This document shows, piece after piece, positions 25,606 to 37,353 of a DNA stretch of 64,000 bases. This DNA comes from Sphingomicrobium nitratireducens. GTDB taxonomy: Bacteria; Pseudomonadota; Alphaproteobacteria; Sphingomonadales; Sphingomonadaceae. Position 1 is the first letter of the stretch. Each line of letters opens with the position of its first letter. The notes below the pieces were generated by a model, which was not told the origin of the DNA, did not search any database, and saw nothing but the letters and a program-made list of their open reading frames with translations. Location of the stretch: contig NZ_JANJZA010000001.1 of NCBI RefSeq assembly GCF_026157035.1, positions 62,001 through 126,000 of the forward strand, given 5' to 3'. The translations under genes were made by a program, and so were the position numbers.

Positions 25606-25696
25606 GGAGCGGTGGCCGAGTGGTCGAAGGCGCACGCCTGGAAAGTGTGTATACGGTAACCCCGTATCGTGGGTTCGAATCCCACCCGCTCCGCCA
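25606..25696 (+). tRNA. tRNA-Ser (anticodon GGA)
   Basis: A 91-nt class II tRNA. The acceptor stem GGAGCGG pairs with CCGCTCC, then the discriminator G and an encoded CCA. The D-arm is GGCCGAGTGGTCGAAGGC, the anticodon loop contains GGA (reads UCC and UCU), the long variable arm GTGTATACGGTAACCCCGTATC is typical of tRNA-Ser, and the T-loop is GGTTCGAATCC. A terminator follows directly. Confidence 0.97.
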
Positions 25697-25698
25697 CG

Positions 25699-25728
25699 AA
25701 AAGGGCCGCCTCCAAGGGCGGCCCTTTT
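25699..25728 (+). terminator. Terminator after tRNA-Ser
   Basis: AAAAGGGCCGCC pairs perfectly with GGCGGCCCTTTT (12 bp), loop TCCAAG, with the T run at the 3' side. It starts two bases after the tRNA CCA end. Confidence 0.92.
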
Positions 25729-25769
25729 GCATTTCTGCGGGCACAACGGCTTCCGACGAGACCGGCCTT

Positions 25770-26080
25770 CACGCCGGCACCTTCGATCTCGATTAGGCTG
25801 AGACCACCACTGCGATCGCCATCCAGTCGGTCGAAGTGTGCGCCGAAATCGACCTGCCGCACGAGCGGCTGACGCGGCATGCGACGTACCGACGACTTGC
25901 CGAGGGATTCGTCGAGCCATGCAGCAAGCTCGATCCGCCCGATCGACCCGTCGCCGTCGCGATCGACCCGGGCGAAGCGCGCCGCGCGTTCCTCTTGTGT
26001 CGTCGCGACCGAAACGCCGGCCACCGCCCCGCCGAACACCAGGGCCCAGATCCACCAGGCGCTGGTATCGACCGCGAACT
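25770..26080 (-). pseudogene. EF-hand protein gene remnant
   Basis: The minus strand encodes a membrane helix (WWIWALVFGGAVAG) followed by two canonical EF-hand loops, DRDGDGSIGRIE and DGDRSGGLSLIE, about 47 residues apart, the layout of small calcium-binding EF-hand proteins. There is no usable start codon before the helix and no stop before the tRNA-Ser gene: the frame runs antisense through the whole tRNA to 25587. The upstream limit falls where the GIY-YIG reading begins on the other strand. So it looks like a gene cut at both ends next to a tRNA, although a functional fusion cannot be excluded. Confidence 0.55.
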
Positions 26081-26453
26081 GGCCCGAGCACAGCTTGAAA
26101 GCGAGAAGCCCGGTTGGATAACTTACGCAATTCACGACCCAACAACGCTTGACCATGTTGGACAATTCAACACGCTGATTGTTTATGTGGGGCAAACCAA
26201 GAATTTCGCATCTCGCGTCAAGCGCAGATTGCGTGAGGCGGGTACGGCAACTCGGCGCCCAACTAGTTACGTCGAAGGCCTCATGTACGATATCATGCGG
26301 CGAGGTGGTGTTCCCAGATTTAGAGTGATTGAGCGCGCAAAGGATGCGATCGACTCATTCGTGTCGGAGACGAACTGGGCGCAGGATTATATCGCGCAAG
26401 GCTACCCTTTGCGAAACAAGTGGAAGAGCAGAGGCATCCCGGCGCGCCGATGA
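25836..26453 (+). CDS. GIY-YIG nuclease family protein (N-terminal half doubtful)
   Basis: The C-terminal half, from about residue 88, is a GIY-YIG-like domain: WITYAIHDP (first strand, GIY position), LIVYVGQTKN (YIG position), the Arg helix ASRVKRRLREAG, and SETNWAQDYIAQGYPLRNKW with the probable catalytic Glu and Asn. The first 85 residues are simply antisense to the EF-hand remnant and do not look like part of the domain, so the gene is either truncated at its 5' end or starts at an unusual codon near 26080. Base composition drops from about 26100 on. The ATG of the next gene overlaps its stop (ATGA). Confidence 0.6.
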   Translation: MCAEIDLPHERLTRHATYRRLAEGFVEPCSKLDPPDRPVAVAIDPGEARRAFLLCRRDRNAGHRPAEHQGPDPPGAGIDRELARAQLESEKPGWITYAIHDPTTLDHVGQFNTLIVYVGQTKNFASRVKRRLREAGTATRRPTSYVEGLMYDIMRRGGVPRFRVIERAKDAIDSFVSETNWAQDYIAQGYPLRNKWKSRGIPARR

Positions 26454-26680
26454 CCCGACAGACCGTCCCTCAAAAATGGCTTTGGCGGCTGGCCGTTGAG
26501 GATGCGATCGAAGCTGGCTTCACGATAGAGGCACTCGATAAGGCTTCTGGCAAGAGTGTCAAAATCGATCTTTCGGCCGAGCGCTCAAAAGAAAAGCTCA
26601 CAACCCGTAGAGGAAATTTGGAAATCCGGATGCGCGAGCTCGGCGCAGTCCCACTAATTCGCCTATGCCCTGGTGAATAG
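26450..26680 (+). CDS. Small hypothetical protein coupled to the GIY-YIG gene
   Basis: 76 residues, starting MTRQTVPQKWLWRLAVEDAIEAGFTIEALD. No recognised domain. The start codon overlaps the stop of the nuclease gene, so they are translated together. A partner or small regulatory subunit of the nuclease is possible, but only the coupling supports that. The composition is AT-richer than the flanking core genome. Confidence 0.6.
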   Translation: MTRQTVPQKWLWRLAVEDAIEAGFTIEALDKASGKSVKIDLSAERSKEKLTTRRGNLEIRMRELGAVPLIRLCPGE

Positions 26681-26682
26681 AC

Positions 26683-26823
26683 ATGTCTGCTGCGACACCA
26701 AGTAAGCGGACGGTCCGCTACCGGCCCAGAATCCGCCGCATCCGCGTGCGCCGATCTAGTGACGAAGCGCACCGCGAAGAGTCACTAGTTGACTGGCTCG
26801 TGAGGCACCTAGATAGCGACTAA
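26683..26823 (+). CDS. Very small basic protein (46 aa), hypothetical
   Basis: Starts MSAATPSKRTVRYRPRIRR: a strongly Arg-rich first half and an acidic second half ending in a short amphipathic helix. It starts three bases after the previous stop and ends 22 bases before the next gene, so it fills the gap exactly in operon fashion. Charge suggests nucleic-acid binding, which is inference only. Confidence 0.4.
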   Translation: MSAATPSKRTVRYRPRIRRIRVRRSSDEAHREESLVDWLVRHLDSD

Positions 26824-26845
26824 ATCTCGTTTGCTGAGGGACGAA

Positions 26846-27037
26846 ATGAAGAAGGTTTTGGATTATCGCAAGCTTGCCAAGATCGCGCGGAATATCGCCG
26901 ACGATATGCACGATCCGGTCGAAAGGGCTCGGCTGACAACACTGGCCGACGACTATGAACGAATGGCGCGGACTCGGGAATCTCAATTGAAACAAGGTAG
27001 TAGCGGCGAGAGCATTCCGAACGCGAGGAAGGGATAG
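26846..27037 (+). CDS. Small hypothetical protein (63 aa)
   Basis: Starts MKKVLDYRKLAKIARNIADDM and contains a helix-rich middle ending in DDYERMARTRE, a pattern frequent in short proteins of alphaproteobacterial mobile regions. The ATG at 26846 has GAGGGAC upstream; a TTG at 26831 is in frame. Convergent with hsp20. Confidence 0.55.
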   Translation: MKKVLDYRKLAKIARNIADDMHDPVERARLTTLADDYERMARTRESQLKQGSSGESIPNARKG

Positions 27038-27038
27038 A

Positions 27039-27069
27039 AAAACCTCCCGTGCTAGGGTTGCACGGGAGG
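27039..27069 (-). terminator. Terminator of hsp20
   Basis: Read on the minus strand, CCTCCCGTGC pairs with GCACGGGAGG (10 bp perfect) with a 7-base loop, followed by TTTTTC. It begins 16 bases after the hsp20 stop. Confidence 0.9.
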
Positions 27070-27084
27070 CCACGGCTTCGACAA

Positions 27085-27558
27085 CTACGCGTCGACCGTG
27101 TTTCGCTGATCTTCGAGTGCGCCTTGATCAGACGATGCACTCTCTCCGATCTCGATCTTTCTCGGCTTCATCGCTTCAGGGATCTCCCGTTTGAGCGAGA
27201 TCGAAAGCAAGCCGTCGTGCATATCGGCGCCGCTGACCTGAACGTGGTCCGCCAGACCGAAGCGGCGTTCGAACGCGCGAGTAGCGATGCCACGATGGAT
27301 GTAAGTTTCGTCCGTGTCGTCGGATTTCCTGCCCGAGACGATCAGCTGGTTCTGCTGGGCGGTGATCTCTAGTTCATCTCGAGAAAAGCCGGCCATCGCG
27401 ATATCGATGCGATATTCATCGTCGCCGCATTTCACCAGATCGAAAGGCGGATATTTCTCGCCCGTTTCAGCCAGGTCATTCGTCTCAAGCATGTCGAAGA
27501 GACGATCGAAGCCCACCGTCGAACGACGGAATGGCGAGAAATCAAAAGCACTGCGCAT
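27085..27558 (-). CDS. Small heat shock protein, Hsp20/IbpA family
   Basis: 157 residues. The N-terminus FDFSPFRRSTVGFDRLFDML and the alpha-crystallin domain from about 38 (YPPFDLVKCGDDEYRIDIAMAGF, then LIVSGRK, IATRAFERRFGLADHV and DGLLSISLKREIPE) are typical of alphaproteobacterial IbpA/HspD. The C-terminal IxI-type anchor is KIEIG. It holds unfolded proteins during heat stress. The gene carries its own RpoH-like promoter and a long leader with an AAGGAGGA ribosome site, both described separately. Confidence 0.93.
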   Translation of the reverse strand: MRSAFDFSPFRRSTVGFDRLFDMLETNDLAETGEKYPPFDLVKCGDDEYRIDIAMAGFSRDELEITAQQNQLIVSGRKSDDTDETYIHRGIATRAFERRFGLADHVQVSGADMHDGLLSISLKREIPEAMKPRKIEIGESASSDQGALEDQRNTVDA

Positions 27559-27637
27559 CTTCTGTCCTCCTTAGTTGAGCAACTATGCGGGAGGTCACCC
27601 AAAAGAGGCGTGTCCAACCCGCGCCGTCTACTTTTGG
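27559..27637 (-). promoter_or_regulatory. Candidate ROSE-like RNA thermometer in the hsp20 leader
   Basis: The ribosome site (complement of 27565-27572, AAGGAGGA) is preceded by TTGCT (27578-27582) with a short intervening loop. ROSE elements, which control alphaproteobacterial small heat-shock genes, use a U(U/C)GCU sequence facing the Shine-Dalgarno in their last hairpin. The expected leader length of about 80 nt fits. I cannot fold it here, so this is a candidate. Confidence 0.45.
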
Positions 27638-27643
27638 CGACAC

Positions 27644-27673
27644 AGATCTAGGAATCTTGAAATCGATTTCAAG
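27644..27673 (-). promoter_or_regulatory. RpoH-type heat-shock promoter of hsp20
   Basis: On the minus strand CTTG (27673-27670), 17 bases, then CCTAGAT (27652-27646), one mismatch from the alphaproteobacterial RpoH pattern CTTG-N17/18-CYTATNT. The -35 lies within an 18-bp perfect palindrome, CTTGAAATCGATTTCAAG, at 27656-27673. Confidence 0.6.
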
Positions 27674-27818
27674 GACGTTGAGCTGACCCGAAAAGGTAGG
27701 CACATCAACGAGATATCGCTTCTTCAGTGCGTTTGGGCGAAAGCATTGAGATCTGCGGAAACCGAGCCGCACCTGCCTCGTTATGCTGCACGGAAAAGGC
27801 ATCAGTAAGGAGTACGCC

Positions 27819-28247
27819 ATGACCTCAGCATTCAAATCCGTCGTTGATAGCACGTACGATTCGATCGAAGGCTACCGCCACGCCATCGAGAAGGCCGATG
27901 ATCCGCAGATCAAAAGCGTTCTTCAGGAAAGACTGGAGCGTCGCGAGGGAACCCTCACTCGCCTCAACGCCGAACTTGTTCGTCAGGGCGAAAACCTGAT
28001 CACCAAGGGCACGGCCACCGGGACCCTTCACCAGCTTTGGTTGGAAGTCGCGTCGTTGATCGAAGGCGGCGACAAAAGCGCCATCGAGCGTGTCAAAGAA
28101 GGCGAAGCCTACCTGGGCGCGAAGTATCGCAAGGCGTTGGAAAGCGACACTCTCGATCCCGACGAGGCGTCGACACTTCGCGACGTTCTTCCCGAGGTCG
28201 AGGAAGGCGAGAGGTTTGCCTCGCTAGCTGAAATTGCCTACGAATAA
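27819..28247 (+). CDS. Ferritin-like four-helix-bundle protein, PA2169/DUF2383 type
   Basis: 142 residues, all helical: FKSVVDSTYDSIEGYRHAIEKADDPQIKSVLQERLERREGTLTRLNAELVRQG is the typical first half of PA2169-family proteins, and the second half closes the bundle. Function is not firmly known; members appear in stress regulons. The ATG at 27819 has AAGGAG seven bases upstream. It is divergent from hsp20, and the palindrome at 27656-27673 lies between them. A strong terminator follows. Confidence 0.85.
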   Translation: MTSAFKSVVDSTYDSIEGYRHAIEKADDPQIKSVLQERLERREGTLTRLNAELVRQGENLITKGTATGTLHQLWLEVASLIEGGDKSAIERVKEGEAYLGAKYRKALESDTLDPDEASTLRDVLPEVEEGERFASLAEIAYE

Positions 28248-28262
28248 TCCCCACGTCGCGTT

Positions 28263-28292
28263 GAGCATGGGTGCTATCGAGCACCCATGCTC
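28263..28292 (+). terminator. Terminator after the four-helix-bundle gene
   Basis: GAGCATGGGTGCT pairs perfectly with AGCACCCATGCTC (13 bp) around a 4-base loop, followed by TTTCCTTTCC. It starts 16 bases after the stop codon. Confidence 0.85.
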
Positions 28293-28523
28293 TTTCCTTT
28301 CCGGCTAATAGTCCTCGACGATCTTTCTGATGGCCCGTTACGTTACGGGTCGTTCAACCGTCTGACCGAAGACATGGCATATTTCGCCGAGTCACCTTTG
28401 GCGAAAATGGATCGGATATTCTCTCATTTCGAGAGCATGCAAATTGCGCTCGCCGTCAGCTACGATTTCTCGCAGGTCCTGCGCGGCTTCCATGTCGATG
28501 GTCGTCTCGAGGATGCACGCTAG
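28287..28523 (+). CDS. Doubtful small ORF (78 aa)
   Basis: The frame is protein-like at its end (AYFAESPLAKMDRIFSHFESMQIALAVSYDF) but its first ATG lies inside the terminator stem and has no ribosome site. An internal ATG at 28374 would leave 49 residues. Nothing is recognised. It is kept because the region is otherwise empty and the composition is not absurd. Confidence 0.25.
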   Translation: MLFPFRLIVLDDLSDGPLRYGSFNRLTEDMAYFAESPLAKMDRIFSHFESMQIALAVSYDFSQVLRGFHVDGRLEDAR

Positions 28524-28771
28524 CTACTTGTCGGTCGCTCTTCGCTAAAGAGATAGCGCCACACGCCCCACGCATTGATGAGTAGCAGCACGCCGTTCAT
28601 CACCGCAATGGGCGCGGCGTCGCTGGTGAGCCCCGAATATATCCACAAGACAGAGACGATACTGAAAAGTACGAACGCGTATCCTGTGGCCCTGCGACCA
28701 AGGTCAAACGCAATTAACGCCGCCGCGAAGATCGCACCGATCGAAGCGATCCACTCCAGAGTTCCTTCCAA
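28520..28771 (-). CDS. Small membrane protein, function unknown
   Basis: 83 residues with three predicted helices (about 6-24, 30-47, 54-72), starting MEGTLEWIASIGAIFAAALIAFDLGRR. The size and topology resemble small membrane proteins often found near stress genes in sphingomonads. No catalytic or binding motif is visible. It stands alone on the minus strand. Confidence 0.65.
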   Translation of the reverse strand: MEGTLEWIASIGAIFAAALIAFDLGRRATGYAFVLFSIVSVLWIYSGLTSDAAPIAVMNGVLLLINAWGVWRYLFSEERPTSS

Positions 28772-28993
28772 TTTATAACTCCACTTTACGCGTTTAACCG
28801 GCGAAATGCTGAAGGCTTCCGACTCACTCAGCCAACAACTTCCCTAGAACGCACCGATGTTGCCGTGGTGCCATGAGCGCTTCGGTTCGTTGGTCGTTGG
28901 CGGGCATTGATGCGTCGCTTTGGTTGAACAGCTCCTTTGATGGATGGTGACGCCAATAGCGGACGGCCCGTTGTCGGCCCAATTGCAGTAACG
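28772..28993. other. Gene-poor stretch left of the truncated gene
   Basis: Together with the following fragment this makes 360 bases with no intact gene. The open frame on the minus strand (28828-29022) has no protein-like composition. The only structure I see is GCCCAATTGCAG at 28977-28988, repeated in the same orientation at 29928-29939 inside the right end of the insertion sequence. Confidence 0.4.
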
Positions 28994-29131
28994 TTAAGCT
29001 TGCTGGTGTTGCAGTCTCTCAAGCAGCCGGGATTTCGAAGCTGTAATCTGTGAGAGATCGAATTCGTCGAGGTGACTGAGGAAGGCCTCGAGGGCGCCGG
29101 CCAGCGCTGGCTTCAGGCCGCACGCAGGTCT
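28994..29131 (-). pseudogene. 3' fragment of a gene truncated by the IS6-family element
   Basis: Between a TAA stop at 28994 and the left inverted repeat of the insertion sequence the minus strand encodes about 45 residues (GLKPALAGALEAFLSHLDEFD and onward to LLERLQHQQA), helical and protein-like. The frame continues only into the antisense of the transposase. This suggests the end of a gene whose front part was lost when the element arrived. The family is not recognised. Confidence 0.4.
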
Positions 29132-29961
29132 TGTCAGACTAACGTGGCAGCGATGCGCACCGGCTGTTAGCAGTGGGTGATGAGCCCTAGTTCGAGAGTG
29201 AATCCGCCAAGCCCGTTTCGTCGTTTCAATTCCTCCCCCGAGATCATCCGCCTCGCGGTGATGATGTACGTGAAGTACCCGTTGAGCCTCAGGAACGTGG
29301 AGGACCTGCTGTTCGAGCGCGGGATCGACATCTGTCATGAGACTGTGCGCTACTGGTGGAACCGGTTCGGACCGATGTTCGCCGGCGACATCCGCCGCCA
29401 GCGGGTGAACCGGATGCGCGGCTTCAAGCAGTGGAAGTGGCATCTCGACGAGATGGTCGTGAAGGTGAACGGCAAGCGTCGCTACTTGTGGCGTGCCGTC
29501 GACCACGAGGGCGAGGTTCTCGAGAGCTATGTCACGGTCGAGCGGGACAAGAAGGCCGCACTGCGGTTCATGAGGAAGACGCTCAAGCGTCACGGCCGGG
29601 CAGAGACGATCGTCACCGACGGGCTTCGCTCCTACAGCGCAGCGATGAGCGAGCTGGGCAATGTCGACCGCCAGGAGGTCGGTCGCCATCTCAACAACCG
29701 GGTGGAGAACAGCCACCTGCCGTTTCGACGACGGGAGAGGGCGATGCAGCGTTTCCGACAGATGAAGTCGCTGCAGATGTTCGCCAGCGTCCACGCCAAC
29801 GTCCACAACCACTTCAACACCGAACGCCACCTCGTCGACCGCACCACCTACAAGCAGCGCCGCTCAGCCGCCCTGGCCGAGTGGCGTCAGCTCATGGGCT
29901 GACCTAACGCGTCAAAGACCGAGGTGCGCCCAATTGCAGGAAAGTGCGAATTAGTCTGACA
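29132..29961 (+). mobile_element. IS6-family insertion sequence
   Basis: An 830-bp element with one transposase gene. Terminal inverted repeats are TGTCAGACTAA at 29132-29142 and its complement at 29951-29961 (11 bp perfect). Size and single-gene layout fit the IS6/IS26 group. The 8-bp flanks (left GCAGGTCT, right GCACCGCG) do not match, so there is no target duplication. That suggests the element took part in a deletion or recombination rather than a simple insertion. Confidence 0.8.
29180..29902 (+). CDS. IS6-family transposase
   Basis: 240 residues. A helix-turn-helix region (IIRLAVMMYVKYPLSLRNVEDLLFERGI, ICHETVRYWWNRFG) is followed by the DDE core: Asp in WHLDEMVVKVNG, Asp in IVTDGLRSY and Glu in NNRVENSHLPFRRRER, with the usual HNHFNTERHL tail. 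All catalytic residues are present and the frame is intact, so it should be active. The ATG at 29180 is used; a GTG three bases upstream is also in frame. Confidence 0.95.
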   Translation: MSPSSRVNPPSPFRRFNSSPEIIRLAVMMYVKYPLSLRNVEDLLFERGIDICHETVRYWWNRFGPMFAGDIRRQRVNRMRGFKQWKWHLDEMVVKVNGKRRYLWRAVDHEGEVLESYVTVERDKKAALRFMRKTLKRHGRAETIVTDGLRSYSAAMSELGNVDRQEVGRHLNNRVENSHLPFRRRERAMQRFRQMKSLQMFASVHANVHNHFNTERHLVDRTTYKQRRSAALAEWRQLMG

Positions 29962-30003
29962 GCACCGCGCCGCCGCATTTCGGTGTCGATTGTGTCAGCG
30001 CCC

Positions 30004-31050
30004 TTAATGCGCGTGGGGGTTCGCCATGTTCTCTTCGCGCTCGAGATAGTAGATGTCCCACAATTCCTTGCGCGTAAAGTGGAGGTGCGGGCGCAGTGCG
30101 AGCAGCGTCGCGCGGCCCAGTTCGCCCTCGATCTCGTGGAGGCGCCGCAGTTCCTCCTCGACGTCGGACGCGGGGGGTTTCATGTCGCCCTTGTGGTGCC
30201 GCTCGAGCAGGTGCTCGGCTGCCAGCACCAGCTTGATGTGCAGTTCGAGATATTCCTCGACATCCTTCTTCGCAAATTCGCCGAAGCGCTCTTCCACCTC
30301 GTCGAGGAAATGACCGAGGCTGCCGTCGACATAGTTGCCGCGCTTGAGGTCGTGGAGCATCCGCTCGTGCGCGGCGAAGTCGAACGCGATCCATTCGTCG
30401 ATCGACTTCTCGTCGCGCTTCAGGAGCACCGAGAGCATCGCGGGCAGCGCCAGCATCATGATCAATGTCGCCATCATCGGGCGATCGCCGAGCAGGTTGT
30501 TGAACAGGCCGTGCGCCAGAATCGCCAGCGCGAGACCCGGGAAGAATTCGCGCAAGCCTGCCTTGTCGGCGCGCACCGACATTCCGTGGCTCATCGTCGC
30601 GAACACCATCGCGGTCGCGCCGTGCATGATCGCGGTGCCGAACCCGCGCACCGTCCACAGCGCGACATTCTCCTGGCCCAGGATGCCGAGATAGAAGAGG
30701 TTCTCGATCACCGCGAAACCGGTGCCCGCGGCGAAACCGATGATCGCCGCGTCGAACGCGAAGCCGACCCGGTCGGTGCGGATATACCAGGCGATCACCG
30801 CGACCTTGAGGATCTCCTCAACCACCGGCCCGCCGAAATGCGAGTAGGTGACATAGTCGATCGCGAATTTTTCCATCAGGAAGGTGTTGACGACATAGGC
30901 CATGAACGAGGCCGCCATGCCCGCCAGCATGACGGTAGCGACGGTCGACACGCGCACCAGCTTGAAGCTGTCGAAGGCGGTCAGCGCGCCAAGGAAGATC
31001 AGCACCGGCGCGCAGCCCAGGAGCGCCTTGATCGCCAGATCGAGGATCAT
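30004..31050 (-). CDS. PrsW family intramembrane metalloprotease
   Basis: 348 residues with about eight membrane helices. The putative active-site motifs are VVEEILK (EExxK, residue ~76), AVIENLFYL (ExxxY-like), HGATAM and HGLFNN, the set that defines PrsW/CPBP-like glutamic/metallo proteases. The last 110 residues form a soluble, charged tail. PrsW in Bacillus cleaves anti-sigma factor RsiW; here no anti-sigma gene is near. GGGAGG precedes the ATG. It starts 27 bases after the large propeller protein, so the two are co-transcribed. Confidence 0.88.
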   Translation of the reverse strand: MILDLAIKALLGCAPVLIFLGALTAFDSFKLVRVSTVATVMLAGMAASFMAYVVNTFLMEKFAIDYVTYSHFGGPVVEEILKVAVIAWYIRTDRVGFAFDAAIIGFAAGTGFAVIENLFYLGILGQENVALWTVRGFGTAIMHGATAMVFATMSHGMSVRADKAGLREFFPGLALAILAHGLFNNLLGDRPMMATLIMMLALPAMLSVLLKRDEKSIDEWIAFDFAAHERMLHDLKRGNYVDGSLGHFLDEVEERFGEFAKKDVEEYLELHIKLVLAAEHLLERHHKGDMKPPASDVEEELRRLHEIEGELGRATLLALRPHLHFTRKELWDIYYLEREENMANPHAH

Positions 31051-31077: not shown

Positions 31078-34014
31078 CTACATGATCTTCAGGCTGACGA
31101 GAATCTCGTCGCTGTCGGGGCCGCTCTCGCGAAAGCCGTTTGCGTAGCCCAGCGAGAGCGTCATGTCCAAGCGGTGCGCCAGCGTGAAATGGAGATCGAC
31201 CTGCGCCCCGAGGCTGTAGGCACGAAAATCGTCCTTGGAGCCGGGATCGACCCACAGCGCGCTGGCGAACAGCGATGGCGCGAGATAGCCGAGATAGAGG
31301 CTCGGCATGCCGACCTCGGCGAAACGCACCGGCGGCAGGTTGAACTCGGCGGTGGTCTTGACGAAGCTTTCCGCCGCCAGCTCGTCGATCTCGAAGCCGG
31401 GCAGGGTCGACATCGAGCGGTAGCGCCGCACCTCGCGGTCGTCGACGTAATTGTTCTTGAAGCCGCCGAAATAGAAGCTCGACAGCGGGCTCGCGTCGTC
31501 GCCGATCGCGACGCCCGCGGCGTTGTAGGTCCACAGCGAGCTGTTGGCCCAAGGCAGCGCGACTCCCGCATTGATCCCGCCGAACAACTTGGTCGAGGTG
31601 ATCTTCGAGGCGTGGTCAACGTTGAGCCCGGCGTTCCACTGCCAGCCCTTCTCGTGATCGACCGCGCCGAGCGATTTTTGCGTGTTGGAATAATGGAGCT
31701 CGGCGGCGCCCGAGAGGATCTCGTTGAAGTCGGTGAACACGTTCTGGTTGGACGGCAGCCGGTCTAGCCCGGTGTAGAAGCCCACCTCCGCCTCGAGATC
31801 GAGCGTGCGCGGTTCGTCGAAGATCAGCGCCTTGCGATAGCCGAGCAGGAAGGCGTCGCCCTTGCGCGCACGCTTGGTCGGGCCGAACAGATCGTAGAAG
31901 TCGGCATAGTTGTGCCACCAGCGCGCCCACCAGGCGATGCCCTTGAAGTGGACGTCGGCGTGCAGTTTCTCCGCACCCGTGATGTCGCCGGTGAGCGAAT
32001 AGCCGACCGTGATGTCGAGCTGGTTGAACTGCATCGGGTCGTCGAAATTGAAGTGGTAGCCGGCCGCCACCCCGTCCTTGTAGCCGAGCGTCACCGGATA
32101 GGCCGAGCCGAGCGCGATGCGCTCGCGCGGATGGTATTTCGACTGGCTGATCCCGAGGCTGTCGAGGTCGACCTTGGTCGGCGAGCCGACGCCCCAGGTC
32201 TCGAGCACCGGGTGCTTGCGCACGATCTCGGTGCCGAGGAAGCTGATCGAACTGACCTCCTCGAGGGGGACGGGGTCGATCTTCACCGGGGTGAAGCCCG
32301 CGCCGGTATATTCGAACACGATTAGCGAGCCGTCCGCCAGCGGCAACGGGCGGAAGAAACCGGTCTCGGCGTTCGACACGAATTCCACCTCGCCGGTCGC
32401 CACTTCCAGCCGGAAGATGTTCGAGACGCCGGTGAAATAGGTGTTGCCGTAGACGTAGCGGCCGTCGGGCGAGAAGGCCGCGCCCTCGGGGATGGCGAGG
32501 TTGGGCTTGTAGGTCGCGATCGGCTCGATCGTGCCCTCTTCGAGATCGGCGAGGCGGTAGACGTGCAGTTCCTGGTCGCCGGTCACCTGCCCGACCGTCG
32601 CCGCGAGAAGGGCGCCGTCGGGCGAGATGTCGAGATCGGAAAGGTCGCCGCCATAGGGCCAGGTGTGGACCTGCGTCCAAGCGGTGTAGGGCGGGTCCAT
32701 CCGCACCAGTGTCGGATAGCCGTTGAGATGCCGGATGCCCCACATCGTCTTGTCGGCGGGATTGATCACCAGCTCGCCGATGCGCGAATCCTTGATCAGC
32801 ATCCTCTCCCTGCCGGTGGCAAGGTCGATCTCGCGCACGTCGCGAAAAGCGTAGTTGTCGCTCGTGTAGTAGAGCTTGTCGGCATCGGGATCGAAGGCGA
32901 GCGAGGTCACCTTGTAGAGCATCGGCCCCTTGATGTCCTTGAGCCGCGTCGCCTCGCCTGTGGCCAGCGAGACTTCGCCGACGTGGGCGACGGTGCCGGG
33001 AAAGCGGAACGCGCCGATCAACGTGTCGCGGTCCGCATCGTAGAAGGCGCGGCTGACCGAGCCCATCGCGCGATCGACCAGCGGGCTCGTCGCGGTCAGC
33101 GGATGCTCGCGCACACGCTCCAGATTGGCATTCTGGAAGTCCTTCTCGAACGCGATCCAGTCGCGCCATACGTCGGTCAGCTTCTTGCCGAACACCTGAC
33201 GGAACTGCGCCGAGTAATAGGCCTTGCTTCCTTCGTTGCGCGACAGCCACTCGACCAGCTTCTCGGGGCCGTACGTGTAGGCGAGGAAGTTCATGAAGCG
33301 GGTGCCGTAGAGATAGGCGTTCACCCCGCCCTGGAAGTCGACCTTGGTGCCCTCGGACACCAGCCCCAGCGCCGAATAGAACTTGGCGTCGTCGCGCGTC
33401 ATCGCGCGGAACACCATCTCGTCGTAGGCACCCTGCGCGCGCCCCAGCCCGCCGGCCATCCAGGTCTCGACGAACACCGCCGAGCCCTCGAGATACCAGC
33501 GCGGGACGTTGACGCGCGGGGTGGCGAGGATCGAATAGAGGATCGTCTCGGGATGCTCCTGCTCAGGCATCGGCTTGCCGAAGAAGATCTTTCGCCACTT
33601 GTCGTCGCTCTCGTTCCATACGTCCATCGTGGCGACGTGGACGAGCTCGTGGTTCATAAGCGAGTAGACGCGTTCGGAAGCAGTGAACGTCTCGAAGGTC
33701 CGCGAGAGCGGCGCCACGTCGATCATCAGCGCGTTGTTGGGGGCCGAGCGCGCCGCCGCGTTGCCGTAGTCGCCGAAATCCTTGAGCAGGACGGTGGTCG
33801 AGTCGTCCCACGGCTCCCAGTCGAACAGCTTCTTCTGGAACTGGTAGCTGTTGTAGAAGCTGCGCGTGACGTGCGGCGTCAGGTAGGTCTGCGGCGGATC
33901 GAAATAGAGAAGGTCGAGATCCTCCGAGCTCTGCTCGTCCATCTCGAAGCCCTGCGCTGCGGCCTGGCCTGCGAGCGCGGTGGTAGCCAGGGCCATTGCA
34001 AGCAATCGGCGCAT
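31078..34014 (-). CDS. Large exported protein: HExxH peptidase-like domain, beta-propeller, C-terminal barrel
   Basis: 978 residues. After a signal peptide (ending GQAAAQ) comes a gluzincin-like domain with MNHELVHVATMDVW near residue 120 and YLEGSAVFVE near 175, which would give the HExxH zinc site and its third Glu ligand. From about 310 to 610 are PD40/TolB-type repeats (YVYGNTYFTG, LDISPDGALLAA, AFSPDGRYVYG). From about 640 to the end, alternating aromatic strands resemble an outer-membrane beta-barrel. This suggests a surface-linked protease, but no such protein is characterised to my knowledge. The ATG at 34014 follows GGGGGTG; a GTG two codons earlier is possible. Confidence 0.75.
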   Translation of the reverse strand: MRRLLAMALATTALAGQAAAQGFEMDEQSSEDLDLLYFDPPQTYLTPHVTRSFYNSYQFQKKLFDWEPWDDSTTVLLKDFGDYGNAAARSAPNNALMIDVAPLSRTFETFTASERVYSLMNHELVHVATMDVWNESDDKWRKIFFGKPMPEQEHPETILYSILATPRVNVPRWYLEGSAVFVETWMAGGLGRAQGAYDEMVFRAMTRDDAKFYSALGLVSEGTKVDFQGGVNAYLYGTRFMNFLAYTYGPEKLVEWLSRNEGSKAYYSAQFRQVFGKKLTDVWRDWIAFEKDFQNANLERVREHPLTATSPLVDRAMGSVSRAFYDADRDTLIGAFRFPGTVAHVGEVSLATGEATRLKDIKGPMLYKVTSLAFDPDADKLYYTSDNYAFRDVREIDLATGRERMLIKDSRIGELVINPADKTMWGIRHLNGYPTLVRMDPPYTAWTQVHTWPYGGDLSDLDISPDGALLAATVGQVTGDQELHVYRLADLEEGTIEPIATYKPNLAIPEGAAFSPDGRYVYGNTYFTGVSNIFRLEVATGEVEFVSNAETGFFRPLPLADGSLIVFEYTGAGFTPVKIDPVPLEEVSSISFLGTEIVRKHPVLETWGVGSPTKVDLDSLGISQSKYHPRERIALGSAYPVTLGYKDGVAAGYHFNFDDPMQFNQLDITVGYSLTGDITGAEKLHADVHFKGIAWWARWWHNYADFYDLFGPTKRARKGDAFLLGYRKALIFDEPRTLDLEAEVGFYTGLDRLPSNQNVFTDFNEILSGAAELHYSNTQKSLGAVDHEKGWQWNAGLNVDHASKITSTKLFGGINAGVALPWANSSLWTYNAAGVAIGDDASPLSSFYFGGFKNNYVDDREVRRYRSMSTLPGFEIDELAAESFVKTTAEFNLPPVRFAEVGMPSLYLGYLAPSLFASALWVDPGSKDDFRAYSLGAQVDLHFTLAHRLDMTLSLGYANGFRESGPDSDEILVSLKIM

Positions 34015-34062
34015 ATTCACCCCCCGTTATTAACGCAAAGCTACGCCTAACTGCGGTTAATG

Positions 34063-34092
34063 AAAAGGGGCCGCCCTTTCGGGCGACCCCTT
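34063..34092 (-). terminator. Terminator of the decapeptide-repeat gene
   Basis: On the minus strand AAGGGGTCGCCC pairs with GGGCGGCCCCTT (one G-T pair), loop GAAA, followed by TTC. It starts 25 bases after the repeat gene stop and separates it from the propeller gene. Confidence 0.8.
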
Positions 34093-34116
34093 CTTCCCTC
34101 GGTCGCGTCTGGCGTC

Positions 34117-35259
34117 CTAGCGGGCCATCGCCTCGGCGAGCTGGCCGCTGCGGGCCATCGCGGCGAAGTTCGCGTCGCGGGCCAGTGCGCGGAAGTTGGC
34201 GTCGCGGGCCATCGCGCCGAACGCCTCGGGATGCCGTGCGAGCACCTTGAACGCGTCGGCATTGCGGGCGAGCACGCCGAACGCGTCGGCATTGCGGGCC
34301 ATCGCCTTGAACGCATCGGCGTTACGCGCGAGCGTGCTCATCGCACCGGCGTCGCGGGCCAGCGCACCGAACGCATCGGCGCTGCGGGCGAGACCGGCAA
34401 ACGCATTGGCGTCGCGGGCCAGCACCTTGAACGCGTCGGCATTCATCGCCAGCGCCTTGAAGGCATTGGCATCGAAGGCGCGCATGAACGCATCGGCGCT
34501 GAACGCGTCGGCATTGCGGGCGAGCACCGAGAAGGCGTCCGCGTTGCGGGCCAGGGTGCTCATCGCACTCGCGTCGCGGGCCAGCGCGTCGAACGCGTCG
34601 GCGTTGCGGGCCATGGCGTCGAACGCACGGGCGTTGGCAGCATCGGCGGCGAACGCCATCGGGTTCTTGGCATAGCCTTCGAACGCACGCGGATTGGCAG
34701 CCATCGCGCGGAAGGCGACCGGATGACGTGCGAGCGCGGCGAAGCCTTCGGCGTTGCGGGCGAGACCCGCCATCGCGTCGGCATTGCGGGCCAGCGCCTT
34801 GAACGCGTCGGCGTTCATCGCCAGCGCCTTGAACGCATCCGCGCTCATCGCACGCGCAGCGGCGTCGGCCGGGAACGCGTCGGCGTTGCGGGCCATCGCT
34901 TCGAACGCTTCGGGATGACGCGCAAGGGCGGTGAAGGCCTCGGGGGCCGCAGCCATCGCATCGATCGCACGCGAGTTGGCGGCGAGCGCGGCGAAATTGG
35001 GATCGGCGGCCAGTGCGCGGAACGCGGGGTCCTTGACCATCAGCTCGAACGCGTCGGTCTGCATGACCTGCGCGATCTGCTCGTCGCCCAGCTGGACGTC
35101 TTCGCTGTTGATCTGGTTGGAACGATAGCGATCGGCGCCGCTGATGGTGCCGACGGCTTCCTTCGAGTCGTACGGCATGTTGTCGACGACCGTGTACACG
35201 CCGCCTGCGGCCAGAATGAGCCCGCCGGCGATCGCGAAGGTCTTGAACTGCTTGGTCAT
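34117..35259 (-). CDS. Periplasmic decapeptide-repeat protein, function unknown
   Basis: 380 residues. A signal-anchor helix at about 8-27 (FAIAGGLILAAGGVYTVV) is followed by a polar linker and then, from about residue 65 to the end, about 25 consecutive 10-residue repeats of the type ALARNADAFK. Position 1 is small or hydrophobic, 2 is Leu/Met, 3 Ala, 4 Arg/Ala, 5 Asn/Asp/His, 6 Ala/Pro, 8 Ala, 9 Phe/Met. The first and last units are 9 residues long. The predicted protein is almost all helix and very low in Gly, Ser and Cys. I recognise no family. It is divergent from a membrane winged-helix/TPR regulator and ends in its own terminator. Confidence 0.85.
   Translation of the reverse strand: MTKQFKTFAIAGGLILAAGGVYTVVDNMPYDSKEAVGTISGADRYRSNQINSEDVQLGDEQIAQVMQTDAFELMVKDPAFRALAADPNFAALAANSRAIDAMAAAPEAFTALARHPEAFEAMARNADAFPADAAARAMSADAFKALAMNADAFKALARNADAMAGLARNAEGFAALARHPVAFRAMAANPRAFEGYAKNPMAFAADAANARAFDAMARNADAFDALARDASAMSTLARNADAFSVLARNADAFSADAFMRAFDANAFKALAMNADAFKVLARDANAFAGLARSADAFGALARDAGAMSTLARNADAFKAMARNADAFGVLARNADAFKVLARHPEAFGAMARDANFRALARDANFAAMARSGQLAEAMAR
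34120..35067 (-). repeat. 30-bp coding tandem repeats
   Basis: Each decapeptide unit is encoded by 30 bases; units such as GAACGCGTCGGCATTGCGGG recur on the plus strand with few changes. Two longer blocks, each containing the irregular 14-residue unit ending in DAFK or NAFK followed by ALAMNADAFK, show that the array also grew by larger duplications. The units are contiguous, without spacers. Confidence 0.9.
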
Positions 35260-35391
35260 GTTTGGTCTCCCGTCAAACTTGATGGAAGGGGTTTGCGCCG
35301 TTCGCTCGCCAAAGTCCTTTTGTGATGCTTGTTAATTTCTTATGGATTCCTTAAACCATGATTGCATTGGAAAATTCGGCTTCCAATTAAC

Positions 35392-37353
35392 GTGGATCAG
35401 GTCGAGTCTTCCATCGAGGGACACCGAAATGGGGGAGGTGGACCGATCGAGACCAAGGCTGACACGACCGTCTGCGCCGCCCCGTTCCGGCTGGGCGACG
35501 TCCGCGTCCTGCCCGCGCGCAACCTGCTGGTCGCGGGCGAGGCGAAGGTCGTCGTCGAACCCAAGATGATGGACCTCCTCTGCGTGCTCGCCGCGCATCC
35601 GCGCGAGGTCGAGACGCGCGACGAGCTGATCCACGAAACCTGGCACGTCGATTATGGCGGCGACGAGAGCCTCAGCCGTGCCATCTCGCTCCTGCGCAAG
35701 GCCTTCCGCGATCTCGGTATCGAGGACCAGGTCATCGAGACCATTCCCCGCCGCGGCTATCGGCTGCTGGTCGATCCCGAACCCGAGGCCGATACGCCCG
35801 ACGAGCCTGCGCCCACGCTCCGCCGCGCACCGGCGACCGCGTCCGCACCGCAGCGGCGATGGTGGCCGATCGCCGTCGTCCTCGTCGTCGGTATCGTGGC
35901 CGCCGCGCTCCTCCTGCGCCCGTCACTTGTCGGCGGCATCCCCGTCACGGACGCGAGCGCGGTCGCGGTGCTGCCCTTCTCTCCCGGCAAGGGCGAGGAT
36001 GACGGGTTCGCCGACAGCCTCGCCGAGGGGGTCGTCGCCCGTCTTGCCACGCTCCCCGACCTGCGCGTTCCCGCGATGCTCTCGGGGGAGACGGTGCCCG
36101 CCACGCAGGCCGAGCTCGAACAGCTGGGCAGGCGGCTCGGCGTGTCGCATCTCCTGTCCGGTTCGGTCCGGCGGCAGGACGACCGCATTCGCGTGACCGC
36201 GCAGCTCATCTCGGTCGAGGACGGCGACCGGGTCTGGGCGCAGACCTTCGAAAATGACGACAGCGACCCCTTCGCCGCGCAGGACCGGATGGCCGAACAG
36301 ATCGTCGCCGCGATCGAGGACGTCGTCCAGGGCAGCATTGCCCGCCCGCCGGCCGACGCGGGAACCGAAAGCCGCGCGGCGTGGCGCGCCTATCGCGAGG
36401 GACGCCGGGCGCTCTCGCAGCGCGGCCCCGACCTCGCCCGGGCGATCGAGCGGTTCGAGGAAGCGGTCGCTGCCGACCCGGACTTCGCTCAAGCGCTCGC
36501 CGCGCTTGCCAGCGCGCATGCCTTTTCCGCCGCCGACCTCCACGTCCGTCCCGAGATCGCCGACAGCCGCGCCGGCTCGTTCGCGCGGCGCGCGTTGGCG
36601 ATCGACGACGGGCTGGCCGAACCGCACGCCGCGCTCGGACGGGTCGCCTGCAGCCAGGGGCGGTGGGAGGACGCGATCGCGAGCTTCGATACCGCACTCG
36701 CGCGCGATCCGGACAATGCGCTGGCGCTGACCGGCAAAGCCGAAGCGCTGCTCCACCTCGGCTATGCCCGCAAGGCGCGCGAGACTGCCGAGCGGGCGAT
36801 CCGGGCCGATCCGCGCGACGCGCTCGCCCGGCAGGTCGCCGGCCAAGCCGCGCAGGCCTCGGGCGCGCTGTCCGACGCCGACCGCGAGTTCCGCGCAGCG
36901 CAGTCGATGGGCCACGGACCCGCCGATCTCGGCCGCGCGCTGCTGCTCGCCCAGTCGGGGGAGGCGGACAAGGCGGCCAGCCTGATGGCGACCGCCTTCG
37001 TGCACGACCAGATGATCACCGAAGCGCAAGCCGAAGGCGCGGCGGCGACCTTTGCGCGGATCATGACGCGCAAGGCCGATCCGGAAAGCGCGCTGCGCCC
37101 CTACCCGGTGCTGGCCGACGACCCCGGCATCCGCGCGATGGCCTTCCTTCTCGCGGGACGGCGGCGCGAAGCTCTCGATCTTCTGCGCGAGGACCATGCC
37201 GCGCTGCCGCTCCTGTGGGCGAACCTTGACCCGGCGCTTCTTTCCAGCCCTGAATTCGAGACCTTCGCGAGCGAGACCAAGCTCGCCGATTACTGGCAAC
37301 GGCACGGCTATCCCGACCGGCTCGCGCAGGCGAGGCGCGCCGCGGCGCCTTGA
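35392..37353 (+). CDS. Membrane-bound winged-helix regulator with TPR domain (CadC/ToxR-like)
   Basis: About 650 residues: an OmpR/PhoB-type winged helix at about 25-115 (MMDLLCVLAAHPREVETRDELIHETW, then SRAISLLRKAFRD and IETIPRRGYRLL), one membrane helix at about 150-170, a FlgO-like domain (VAVLPFSPGKGEDDGFADSLAEGVVARL) and C-terminal TPR repeats. It is expected to sense something in the periplasm and bind DNA. The start is uncertain: GTG 35392 is used, TTG 35362 is in frame, and a strong GGGGGAGG stands ideally before an in-frame ATC at 35446. Divergent from the repeat-protein gene, which makes that gene a likely target. Confidence 0.85.
   Translation: MDQVESSIEGHRNGGGGPIETKADTTVCAAPFRLGDVRVLPARNLLVAGEAKVVVEPKMMDLLCVLAAHPREVETRDELIHETWHVDYGGDESLSRAISLLRKAFRDLGIEDQVIETIPRRGYRLLVDPEPEADTPDEPAPTLRRAPATASAPQRRWWPIAVVLVVGIVAAALLLRPSLVGGIPVTDASAVAVLPFSPGKGEDDGFADSLAEGVVARLATLPDLRVPAMLSGETVPATQAELEQLGRRLGVSHLLSGSVRRQDDRIRVTAQLISVEDGDRVWAQTFENDDSDPFAAQDRMAEQIVAAIEDVVQGSIARPPADAGTESRAAWRAYREGRRALSQRGPDLARAIERFEEAVAADPDFAQALAALASAHAFSAADLHVRPEIADSRAGSFARRALAIDDGLAEPHAALGRVACSQGRWEDAIASFDTALARDPDNALALTGKAEALLHLGYARKARETAERAIRADPRDALARQVAGQAAQASGALSDADREFRAAQSMGHGPADLGRALLLAQSGEADKAASLMATAFVHDQMITEAQAEGAAATFARIMTRKADPESALRPYPVLADDPGIRAMAFLLAGRRREALDLLREDHAALPLLWANLDPALLSSPEFETFASETKLADYWQRHGYPDRLAQARRAAAP

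What the first reader, a model, noticed from the sequence alone, without database searches (positions are those of the whole stretch)
34117..35259. Protein built of about 25 decapeptide repeats (ALARNADAFK type)
After a signal anchor the whole protein is a regular array of 10-residue units with Leu/Met, Ala, Arg, Asn and Phe at fixed positions, encoded by 30-bp DNA units. Duplicated larger blocks show growth at more than one scale. The array ends in shortened 9-residue units. It matches no repeat family I know (not TPR, pentapeptide, HEAT or Sel1). A regular helical solenoid or filament in the periplasm is a reasonable hypothesis.
Basis: seen in the sequence. Interest (0 to 1): 0.75.

Follow-up and report, generated by a model that had tools for sequence, protein, structure and literature searches.

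The report
Swappable repeat spacer in protease operon
The protein made of ten-letter repeats is the first gene of a rare, conserved three-gene bacterial operon whose other two genes look like an outer-membrane protein with a protease motif and a membrane-embedded protease, and related bacteria fill the repeat slot with quite different simple repeats, as if only its bulk or length mattered.

Summary
The array is real. Window 34117-35259 (minus strand) encodes 380 aa: an N-terminal membrane anchor, a conserved juxtamembrane segment (GTI..A.RY...DV.LGD...MQTDAF) and 31 units (25 of ten, four of nine, two of fourteen residues). Lag-10 identity is 0.45 against 0.17 shuffled (z 14.6). The coordinates capture a third of the finding. 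The gene opens a three-gene operon: repeat protein; a ~980-aa protein with HExxH...E, a weakly TolB-like propeller and a possible C-terminal barrel; and a PrsW-family protease. Of 41 loci examined, all 38 with room have a repeat protein upstream, and 39 of 40 testable have PrsW directly downstream. In relatives the same anchor carries unrelated arrays: AASQ or AASN tetrads, AAKAAADS octads; two cut loci show EALGH or EGLAAQGRAA. Protease motifs stay invariant. Best reading: a membrane-anchored periplasmic spacer, comparable to TolA/TonB domain II, coupling an outer-membrane protease to intramembrane proteolysis (0.45). Resemblance to a phage tail fibre (7qlr) does not prove homology.

The parts
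34117..35259 (-). Repeat-protein gene, 380 aa (P0001)
   Evidence: ORF; GGGAGA at 35266-35271 upstream
35185..35238 (-). Probable N-terminal transmembrane anchor (residues 8-25), rich in Ala/Gly; no signal-peptidase site evident by eye
   Evidence: Read from sequence; aligned in 12 homologues; no topology program was run
35047..35154 (-). Conserved juxtamembrane segment, residues 36-71; kept where the array is another repeat
   Evidence: GT[IVL] and MQ[TS]D present in 35 of 35 complete homologues; profile of it found in 4 of 250 class genomes, all operon carriers
34120..35064 (-). Decad array, residues 66-380: 31 units (25x10, 4x9, 2x14)
34846..34887 (-). First 14-residue unit (residues 125-138)
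34474..34515 (-). Second 14-residue unit (residues 249-262)
34063..34094 (-). Terminator-like hairpin whose stem runs into a short U tract, between the repeat gene and the next gene
   Evidence: -28.1 kcal/mol, z -4.97. The generic terminator scan did not list it
31078..34020 (-). P0002, 980 aa from the GTG: signal-peptide-like start, HELVH (33637-33651) with distal EGSA glutamate, weak TolB-like propeller, possible C-terminal barrel
30004..31050 (-). P0003, 348 aa PrsW-family intramembrane protease
   Evidence: PF13367 E 2.9e-18, 66.6 bits against a cut-off of 23.5; 7 of 7 aligned homologues
35362..37353 (+). Context only: divergent CadC-like winged-helix/TPR regulator; no tblastn match in the other fetched loci
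29177..29902 (+). Context only: IS6-type transposase (DDE_Tnp_IS240) 102 bp from the operon's 3' end

Best explanation
The repeat protein is an inner-membrane-anchored spacer that projects into the periplasm and works with the two proteins encoded after it. Its N-terminal helix sits in the inner membrane, the conserved juxtamembrane segment is the recognition or processing site, and the array is a rod whose sequence can be exchanged as long as it stays Ala-rich, regular and roughly 310-550 residues long. P0002 would sit at the outer membrane by a C-terminal barrel with its protease and TolB-like propeller in the periplasm, and would meet or cut the spacer; PrsW would then cut the anchor within the inner membrane. 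Shown: the gene order, the conserved anchor segment, the invariant protease motifs, the different arrays in one slot, the hairpin between genes 1 and 2 in many loci. Inferred: topology, the barrel, the helical unit, that the spacer reaches P0002, and that either protease cuts the repeat protein. The hairpin suggests, but does not show, that the repeat protein is made in excess over the other two.
For: Operon: repeat protein upstream of P0002 in 38 of 38 loci with room (35 complete, 3 cut by the contig end); 3 more loci have at most 334 nt upstream. In one search the upstream ORF was picked by the MQTD motif or by Ala content above 22%; afterwards 35 of 35 complete ones were found to carry the anchor motifs. 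PrsW match directly downstream in 39 of 40 testable loci, own included. In the family sample the 4 of 199 genomes with the repeat protein (own included) are exactly the 4 with full-length P0002. Different arrays behind one anchor: AASQ (L032, L083), AASN (L084), AAKAAADS octads (L085, L087, L088), 14-mers inside decads (L081); L079 (EALGH) and L082 (EGLAAQGRAA) show other repeats before a usual decad end, but their anchors lie beyond the contig end. P0002 stays 52-68% identical to the window's across 9 aligned loci. HExxH and distal Glu 41 of 41; PrsW HxxxN 35 of 35. TolB is the best PDB match of the P0002 profile, E 0.0016-0.0055 for eleven largely redundant TolB chains. Clean terminator-like hairpin in 17 of 37 loci scanned (stability controls for five of them). 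Precedent for a periplasm-spanning domain that varies between helix, polyproline and disorder: TolA/TonB domain II (PMC12204202, abstract and passages).
Against: Complete arrays of 312-550 residues exceed the TolA (192) and TonB (113) domain II lengths quoted in PMC12204202; as one straight helix they would far overshoot a periplasm, so folding back or a compact solenoid is needed. No TolA/TonB C-terminal domain is found in P0001, and the tetrad and octad proteins show no C-terminal domain at all. In decad proteins a block of specialised units is kept in register (Y/F unit to D..AM unit 33 residues apart in 27 of 31 pairs), which a mere spacer would not need. Marinicaulis has the pair without an adjacent PrsW (a 707-aa PrsW fusion lies elsewhere). 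The clean hairpin is absent from 18 of the 21 other same-genus loci scanned and from L033 and L036. Propeller and barrel are weak calls: no Pfam cut-off is passed by P0002, and the beta pattern is not confined to the C-terminal third.
Confidence: 0.45

Rival explanations
1. Regulated proteolysis: the repeat protein is mainly a sensor and substrate. Envelope damage changes how the array is held; P0002 makes the first cut, PrsW the second, and the released fragment is the signal or is cleared.
For: Both protease motifs invariant while the array sequence is free; the anchor is rich in Ala and Gly, as intramembrane-protease substrates often are (general knowledge); PrsW makes the site-1 cut of RsiW in Bacillus (stated in PMC3482391, passage).
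Against: By eye only about 7-16 residues precede the anchor, so there is no cytoplasmic effector domain; sigma or anti-sigma genes were not searched for; cutting is wholly inferred.
Confidence: 0.25
2. Periplasmic holdase: the decad array is a string of STI1-like N/D-P capped short helices that bind hydrophobic segments and hand them to the P0002 protease.
For: Some forward decad proteins draw matches to XPC-binding, STI1-HOP_DP and UBQLN1 models, while a reversed and a unit-scrambled L002 array draw none.
Against: No single stretch passes on its own; unrelated models (YlbE, DUF2153, Cons_hypoth95, Herpes_HEPA, DUF447_N and others) match at similar strength, two of them above their cut-offs (YlbE in L089, Herpes_HEPA in L033); P0001 has no hit at 0.01; the tetrad and octad arrays in the same slot contain only 1-5% F, L, M, I, V, Y, W, so hydrophobic binding is unlikely to be the conserved function.
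Confidence: 0.1
3. Cargo: the repeat protein is the product that P0002 releases or exports as a surface fibre, so that its sequence drifts like a surface antigen.
For: First gene followed by a strong hairpin in many loci, as for major subunits (general knowledge); similarity to a phage tail-fibre repeat; patchy spread and apparent horizontal transfer.
Against: The anchor lacks a signal-peptidase site by eye; no surface-repeat family passes a cut-off for P0001. Export signals were not otherwise tested.
Confidence: 0.12
4. Nothing special: a low-complexity protein drifting by replication slippage without function.
For: Ala-rich, length-variable arrays; the L079 array with EALGH pentads looks recently expanded (synonymous agreement 0.76 against 0.60 expected).
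Against: In the other 15 of 16 arrays tested, synonymous agreement between neighbouring units is within about 0.08 of expectation or below it while amino acids stay regular; most clearly L084 (0.81 amino-acid identity at lag 4, synonymous 0.22 against 0.36). The gene is kept in 38 of 38 testable operon loci.
Confidence: 0.05

Closest known systems
TolA / TonB domain II with TolB (trans-envelope force transducers)
   Same: N-terminal inner-membrane helix, long low-complexity middle whose sequence and secondary structure vary between species, partner with a TolB-like propeller
   Different: No SHLS motif and no TolA/TonB C-terminal domain seen, no motor gene in the operon, partner carries a protease motif and a possible barrel, arrays longer and strictly periodic
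PrsW intramembrane protease / RsiW (regulated intramembrane proteolysis)
   Same: PrsW-family enzyme encoded with a protein that has one predicted membrane helix
   Different: No anti-sigma domain seen; the candidate target is a long repeat protein and has not been shown to be cut
phiCDHS1 tail fibre, PDB 7qlr (and tail-fibre family phrog_7809)
   Same: Ten-residue units of similar spacing; the one PDB sequence match of P0001 at E below 0.1
   Different: Phage fibre; homology not shown: reversed P0001 still matched phrog_7809 (8.6e-11) almost as well as P0001 (5.1e-12), although it did not match 7qlr
STI1 / XPC-binding / ubiquilin STI1 domains
   Same: Short amphipathic helices with N/D-P starts (recalled); forward-only model matches in some homologues
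   Different: No stretch significant on its own, not seen in P0001, and unrelated models match as well

Membership tests
TolA/TonB | C-terminal TolA-III / TonB_C domain | tested here: not met
   No such Pfam match for P0001 or for L084, L087, L083, L078, L002
TolA/TonB | SHLS motif (S.H.L.S) in the membrane helix | tested here: not met
   Pattern in the first 80 residues: 0 of 38 sequences, 35 of which have their N-terminus
TolA/TonB | Motor genes (tolQR/exbBD) beside the gene | tested here: inconclusive
   None of the window's three operon genes is one; genes elsewhere were not searched
TolA/TonB | Periplasm-spanning low-complexity domain II | tested here: inconclusive
   Anchor plus Ala-rich array present; span and topology not tested
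TolB | TolB beta-propeller in P0002 | tested here: inconclusive
   TolB chains are the best PDB profile matches, E 0.0016-0.0055; PD40 in 5 of 9 members at E 0.01 or better, best 2.7e-5; P0002 below all cut-offs
PrsW family | PF13367 above gathering score | tested here: met
   P0003 66.6 bits against 23.5; the other six aligned homologues match at E 0.01 or better, bits not shown
PrsW family | Catalytic EExxK, EN, H, HxxxN motifs | tested here: met
   35 of 35 aligned ORFs; the first three helped select the ORFs, HxxxN did not; 7 operon or fragment loci gave no ORF under that selection
Gluzincin metallopeptidase | HExxH plus distal Glu | tested here: met
   41 of 41 aligned; the ORFs were picked by NHE..H, so the distal Glu is the independent part. 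No peptidase model reaches E 0.01
Outer-membrane barrel (Omp85-like) | C-terminal transmembrane beta-barrel | tested here: inconclusive
   Omp85_2 E 0.0034 below cut-off in 1 of 9; amphipathic strand pattern in much of 601-960, weak at 841-920, and also high at 201-240 (no shuffled control)
phrog_7809 phage tail fibre | Homology to the fibre repeat | tested here: inconclusive
   Forward 5.1e-12, reversed control 8.6e-11
STI1-type domain | Pfam match above gathering score | tested here: not met
   P0001 none; above cut-off only L002 UBQLN1 36.9 bits and L033 XPC-binding 27.5 bits, neither with a stretch significant on its own
Pentapeptide, TPR, HEAT, Sel1 repeats | Family model match | tested here: not met
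   None for P0001 in Pfam or NCBIfam at E up to 1

The most novel reading that the evidence does not exclude
A new trans-envelope sensor in which two conserved proteases read a physical property, length or tension, of an inner-membrane-anchored rod: evolution keeps the anchor and both active sites but has exchanged the rod's sequence wholesale, decads in some lineages, tetrads, octads or pentads in others, because only its mechanics matter.
Probability: 0.2. Interest if true: 0.85.

Novelty: new variant of a known kind. Interest (0 to 1): 0.6.

Why it matters
It is a natural experiment in which one slot of one operon is filled with several unrelated periodic sequences while the partners stay nearly fixed. 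That makes a general question directly testable: what must a periplasmic spacer provide beyond length and regularity. It also puts a PrsW-family protease in a near-fixed three-gene unit with a candidate substrate and a candidate outer-membrane partner. I saw no description of this operon in the paper searches made (open-access library only, narrow term combinations; three of the four returned nothing and the three papers listed were not about it by title and abstract start).

Tried and rejected
Chance or slippage: rejected by shuffles and by codon analysis of 16 of the 38 arrays. Known repeat families: none above cut-off for P0001. Phage origin: tblastn of P0001 and of the L002 protein against 50,697 phage records gave nothing, but that search filters low-complexity sequence, so the negative is weak; the viral-contig scan used patterns from the anchor only and found no confirmed relative; the PHROG match failed its reversed control. 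So I claim no homology to the tail fibre. Defence system: no PADLOC match at 0.01. Regulator P0004 as part of the operon: no tblastn match in the other fetched loci, whose upstream flanks are short in several cases. A strict regular expression for HExxH gave 27 of 41; it demanded NHEL and AT, and the alignment replaced it. mis-parsed the window's own ORF; corrected. One search missed the L105 repeat ORF, which lies further upstream; found, added. L088 (partial P0002) and L110 (fragment from another class, no repeat ORF) were left out of the tree; L110 is not counted among the operon loci; a same-genus hit, G1060, was not fetched. The generic terminator scan missed the window hairpin, probably because its stem runs into the U tract. 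Array lengths include L089 whole (its array is 453); the ranges are unaffected.

Full report
Observation. The ORF at 34117-35259 on the minus strand encodes 380 aa. Residue identity at lag 10 is 0.45 and at lag 20 is 0.39 against a shuffled mean of 0.17 (z 14.6 and 13.1). The array from residue 66 parses into 31 units: 25 of ten, four of nine (two near each end) and two of fourteen residues. DNA periods of 27, 30 and 60 bp and a diverged 138-nt block are found.

Unit anatomy. In 663 units taken by pattern from 30 decad proteins (the pattern constrained positions 4, 5, 8 and 9), position 1 is N, D or H in about 79%, position 2 is mostly A or P, and 223 of 251 prolines lie at position 2. N/D/H followed by P is a helix N-cap (general knowledge), so each unit is most simply a two-turn helix plus a turn. 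This is inference: no model could be made. In decad proteins the units are not freely interchangeable: a Y/F-starting unit is followed 33 residues later by a D..AM unit in 27 of 31 pairs within 60 residues.

Operon. The gene is followed by P0002 (980 aa) and P0003 (348 aa, PrsW family). In a family sample, 4 of 199 genomes (own included) have the repeat protein and the same 4 have full-length P0002 (six further P0002 matches there are weak and partial). In a class sample P0002 was found in 5 of 385 genomes and the decad profile in 4 of 385; the fifth, G202, carries an AASQ array instead. Wider sampling with the P0002 profile at E 1e-20: phylum 2 of 398 (own and a fragment in G659), order of G336 1 of 3, order of G202 12 of 96, own genus 24 of 61, order of G416 2 of 4; some genomes recur between samples, and samples within class or phylum are draws from larger groups. 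I examined 40 fetched operon loci plus the window. One same-genus hit, G1060 (a partial match), was not fetched. Of these 41, three have at most 334 nt upstream; the other 38 all have a repeat protein there, 35 complete and 3 cut by the contig end. The ORF was picked by the MQTD motif or Ala content; all 35 complete ones carry the anchor motifs. In L105 an extra stretch separates it from P0002. A PrsW match lies directly downstream in 39 of 40 testable loci; the exception is Marinicaulis L002, whose genome has a 707-aa PrsW fusion elsewhere.

Array exchange. Thirty of the 38 arrays are decads. In the order of G202 the same anchor carries AASQ tetrads (L032, L083), AASN/AAQN tetrads (L084) and AAKAAADS octads (L085, L087, L088); L081 has 14-mers inside decads; L079 (EALGH pentads) and L082 (EGLAAQGRAA decads) are cut by the contig end, so their anchors are not seen, but both keep the usual decad C-terminus. 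The tetrad and octad proteins do not. Complete arrays are 316-550 residues (29 decad proteins), 369-405 (3 tetrad) and 312-321 (3 octad). Net charge and, between types, hydrophobic content are not conserved. On the P0002 tree the two AASQ rows are together, the two octad rows are together, and these with L084 and the cut L086 form one group (each 100/100, 40 rows, root by midpoint only, so the direction of change is not known). Synonymous sites of neighbouring units match about as expected in most of the 16 arrays tested and worse in L084 (0.22 against 0.36), so regularity is held at protein level; L079 is the exception, 0.76 against 0.60.

What is conserved instead. The juxtamembrane segment is shared by decad, tetrad and octad proteins, and a profile of it found 4 of 250 class genomes, all operon carriers. 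HExxH and the distal glutamate of P0002 are invariant in 41 of 41; the ORFs had been picked by NHE..H, so the glutamate is the independent part. PrsW catalytic positions are invariant in 35 of 35 aligned ORFs; three of the motifs were used in picking them, so HxxxN is the independent part. The P0002 profile's best PDB matches are TolB chains, E 0.0016-0.0055, largely one protein many times over. Its C-terminal third has much of the alternating pattern of membrane strands, though 841-920 is weak and 201-240 scores high too. These two domain calls are inference.

Expression. A stable hairpin stands between gene 1 and gene 2 in the window (-28.1 kcal/mol, z -4.97) and in four relatives folded with the same control (L002, L032, L034, L083; z -6.5 to -8.3). 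A scan of 37 loci, without a shuffled control, gave 20 at -12 kcal/mol or better; I count 17 as clean: all ten of the G202 order that were scanned, L002, L034, L035, the window, and three same-genus loci. Eighteen of the 21 other same-genus loci, L033 and L036 lack a clean one. The likely meaning is excess of repeat protein over its partners.

History. On the P0002 tree the window groups with Marinicaulis (100/100) and not with its own genus. The operon lies 102 bp from an IS6-type transposase, with lower-GC DNA (0.555 in 26-29 kb against 0.66-0.72 in the 20-24 kb and 35-48 kb stretches) running back to a tRNA-Ser at 25606-25696. Horizontal acquisition is likely.

Known kinds. 7qlr, a phage tail fibre, is the one PDB match of P0001 at E below 0.1; L034 also matches it (2e-8), with weaker matches to designed proteins. 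Reversed P0001 did not match 7qlr but did match the tail-fibre PHROG (8.6e-11 against 5.1e-12 forward), so periodic composition explains much of the resemblance. STI1-like models match some homologues, but so do unrelated models. The best functional comparison is TolA/TonB domain II, which PMC12204202 (abstract and passages seen) reports to vary between helix, polyproline and disorder, with lengths of 192 and 113 residues (the passage is cut before it says mean or median). Membership fails on the C-terminal domain and the SHLS motif. PMC3482391 (passages) describes PrsW as the site-1 protease of RsiW and as fused to toxins; no toxin model matches here. PMC10478639 (passages) uses 7qlr as a phasing example.

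Conclusion. An inner-membrane-anchored, sequence-tolerant periplasmic spacer working with an outer-membrane protease-like protein and PrsW is the best reading, 0.45. The operon and the array exchange are well supported; topology, contact, cutting and fold are inferred.

Noticed in passing
window 25606-30000: tRNA-Ser(GGA) followed by about 4 kb of lower-GC DNA with an Hsp20 gene, a DUF2383 gene and an IS6-type transposase: looks like an island border next to the operon.
   Followed up: partly
window 34060-35325, plus strand: A 421-aa open frame lies antisense to the repeat gene; probably a by-product of the periodic codons.
   Followed up: no
L079 1-290: About nineteen EALGH pentads at a contig end with high synonymous agreement; probably a young expansion.
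   Followed up: partly
L112 1489-3612: A 707-aa protein in Marinicaulis with a PrsW-like N-terminal part and a long C-terminal extension.
   Followed up: no
L032, L083, L085, L087, L088: The tetrad and octad proteins of these five loci, and no other of the 38, end in histidine.
   Followed up: no
L087 2210-3409, residues 24-89: The anchor region draws a weak, below-cut-off match to the Wzz chain-length determinant model (E 0.00021, 22.0 against 25.5 bits).
   Followed up: no
L084 repeat protein, residues 97-163: The AASN array matches phrog_8332, a phage family of unknown function (E 6.4e-12, no single stretch passing); no reversed control was run.
   Followed up: no
L110 (G659): The one homologue found outside the class at E 1e-20 in the sample: about the first third of P0002 in a 615-aa frame, near an ORF that looks glycosyltransferase-like (label recalled), without a repeat protein.
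   Followed up: no
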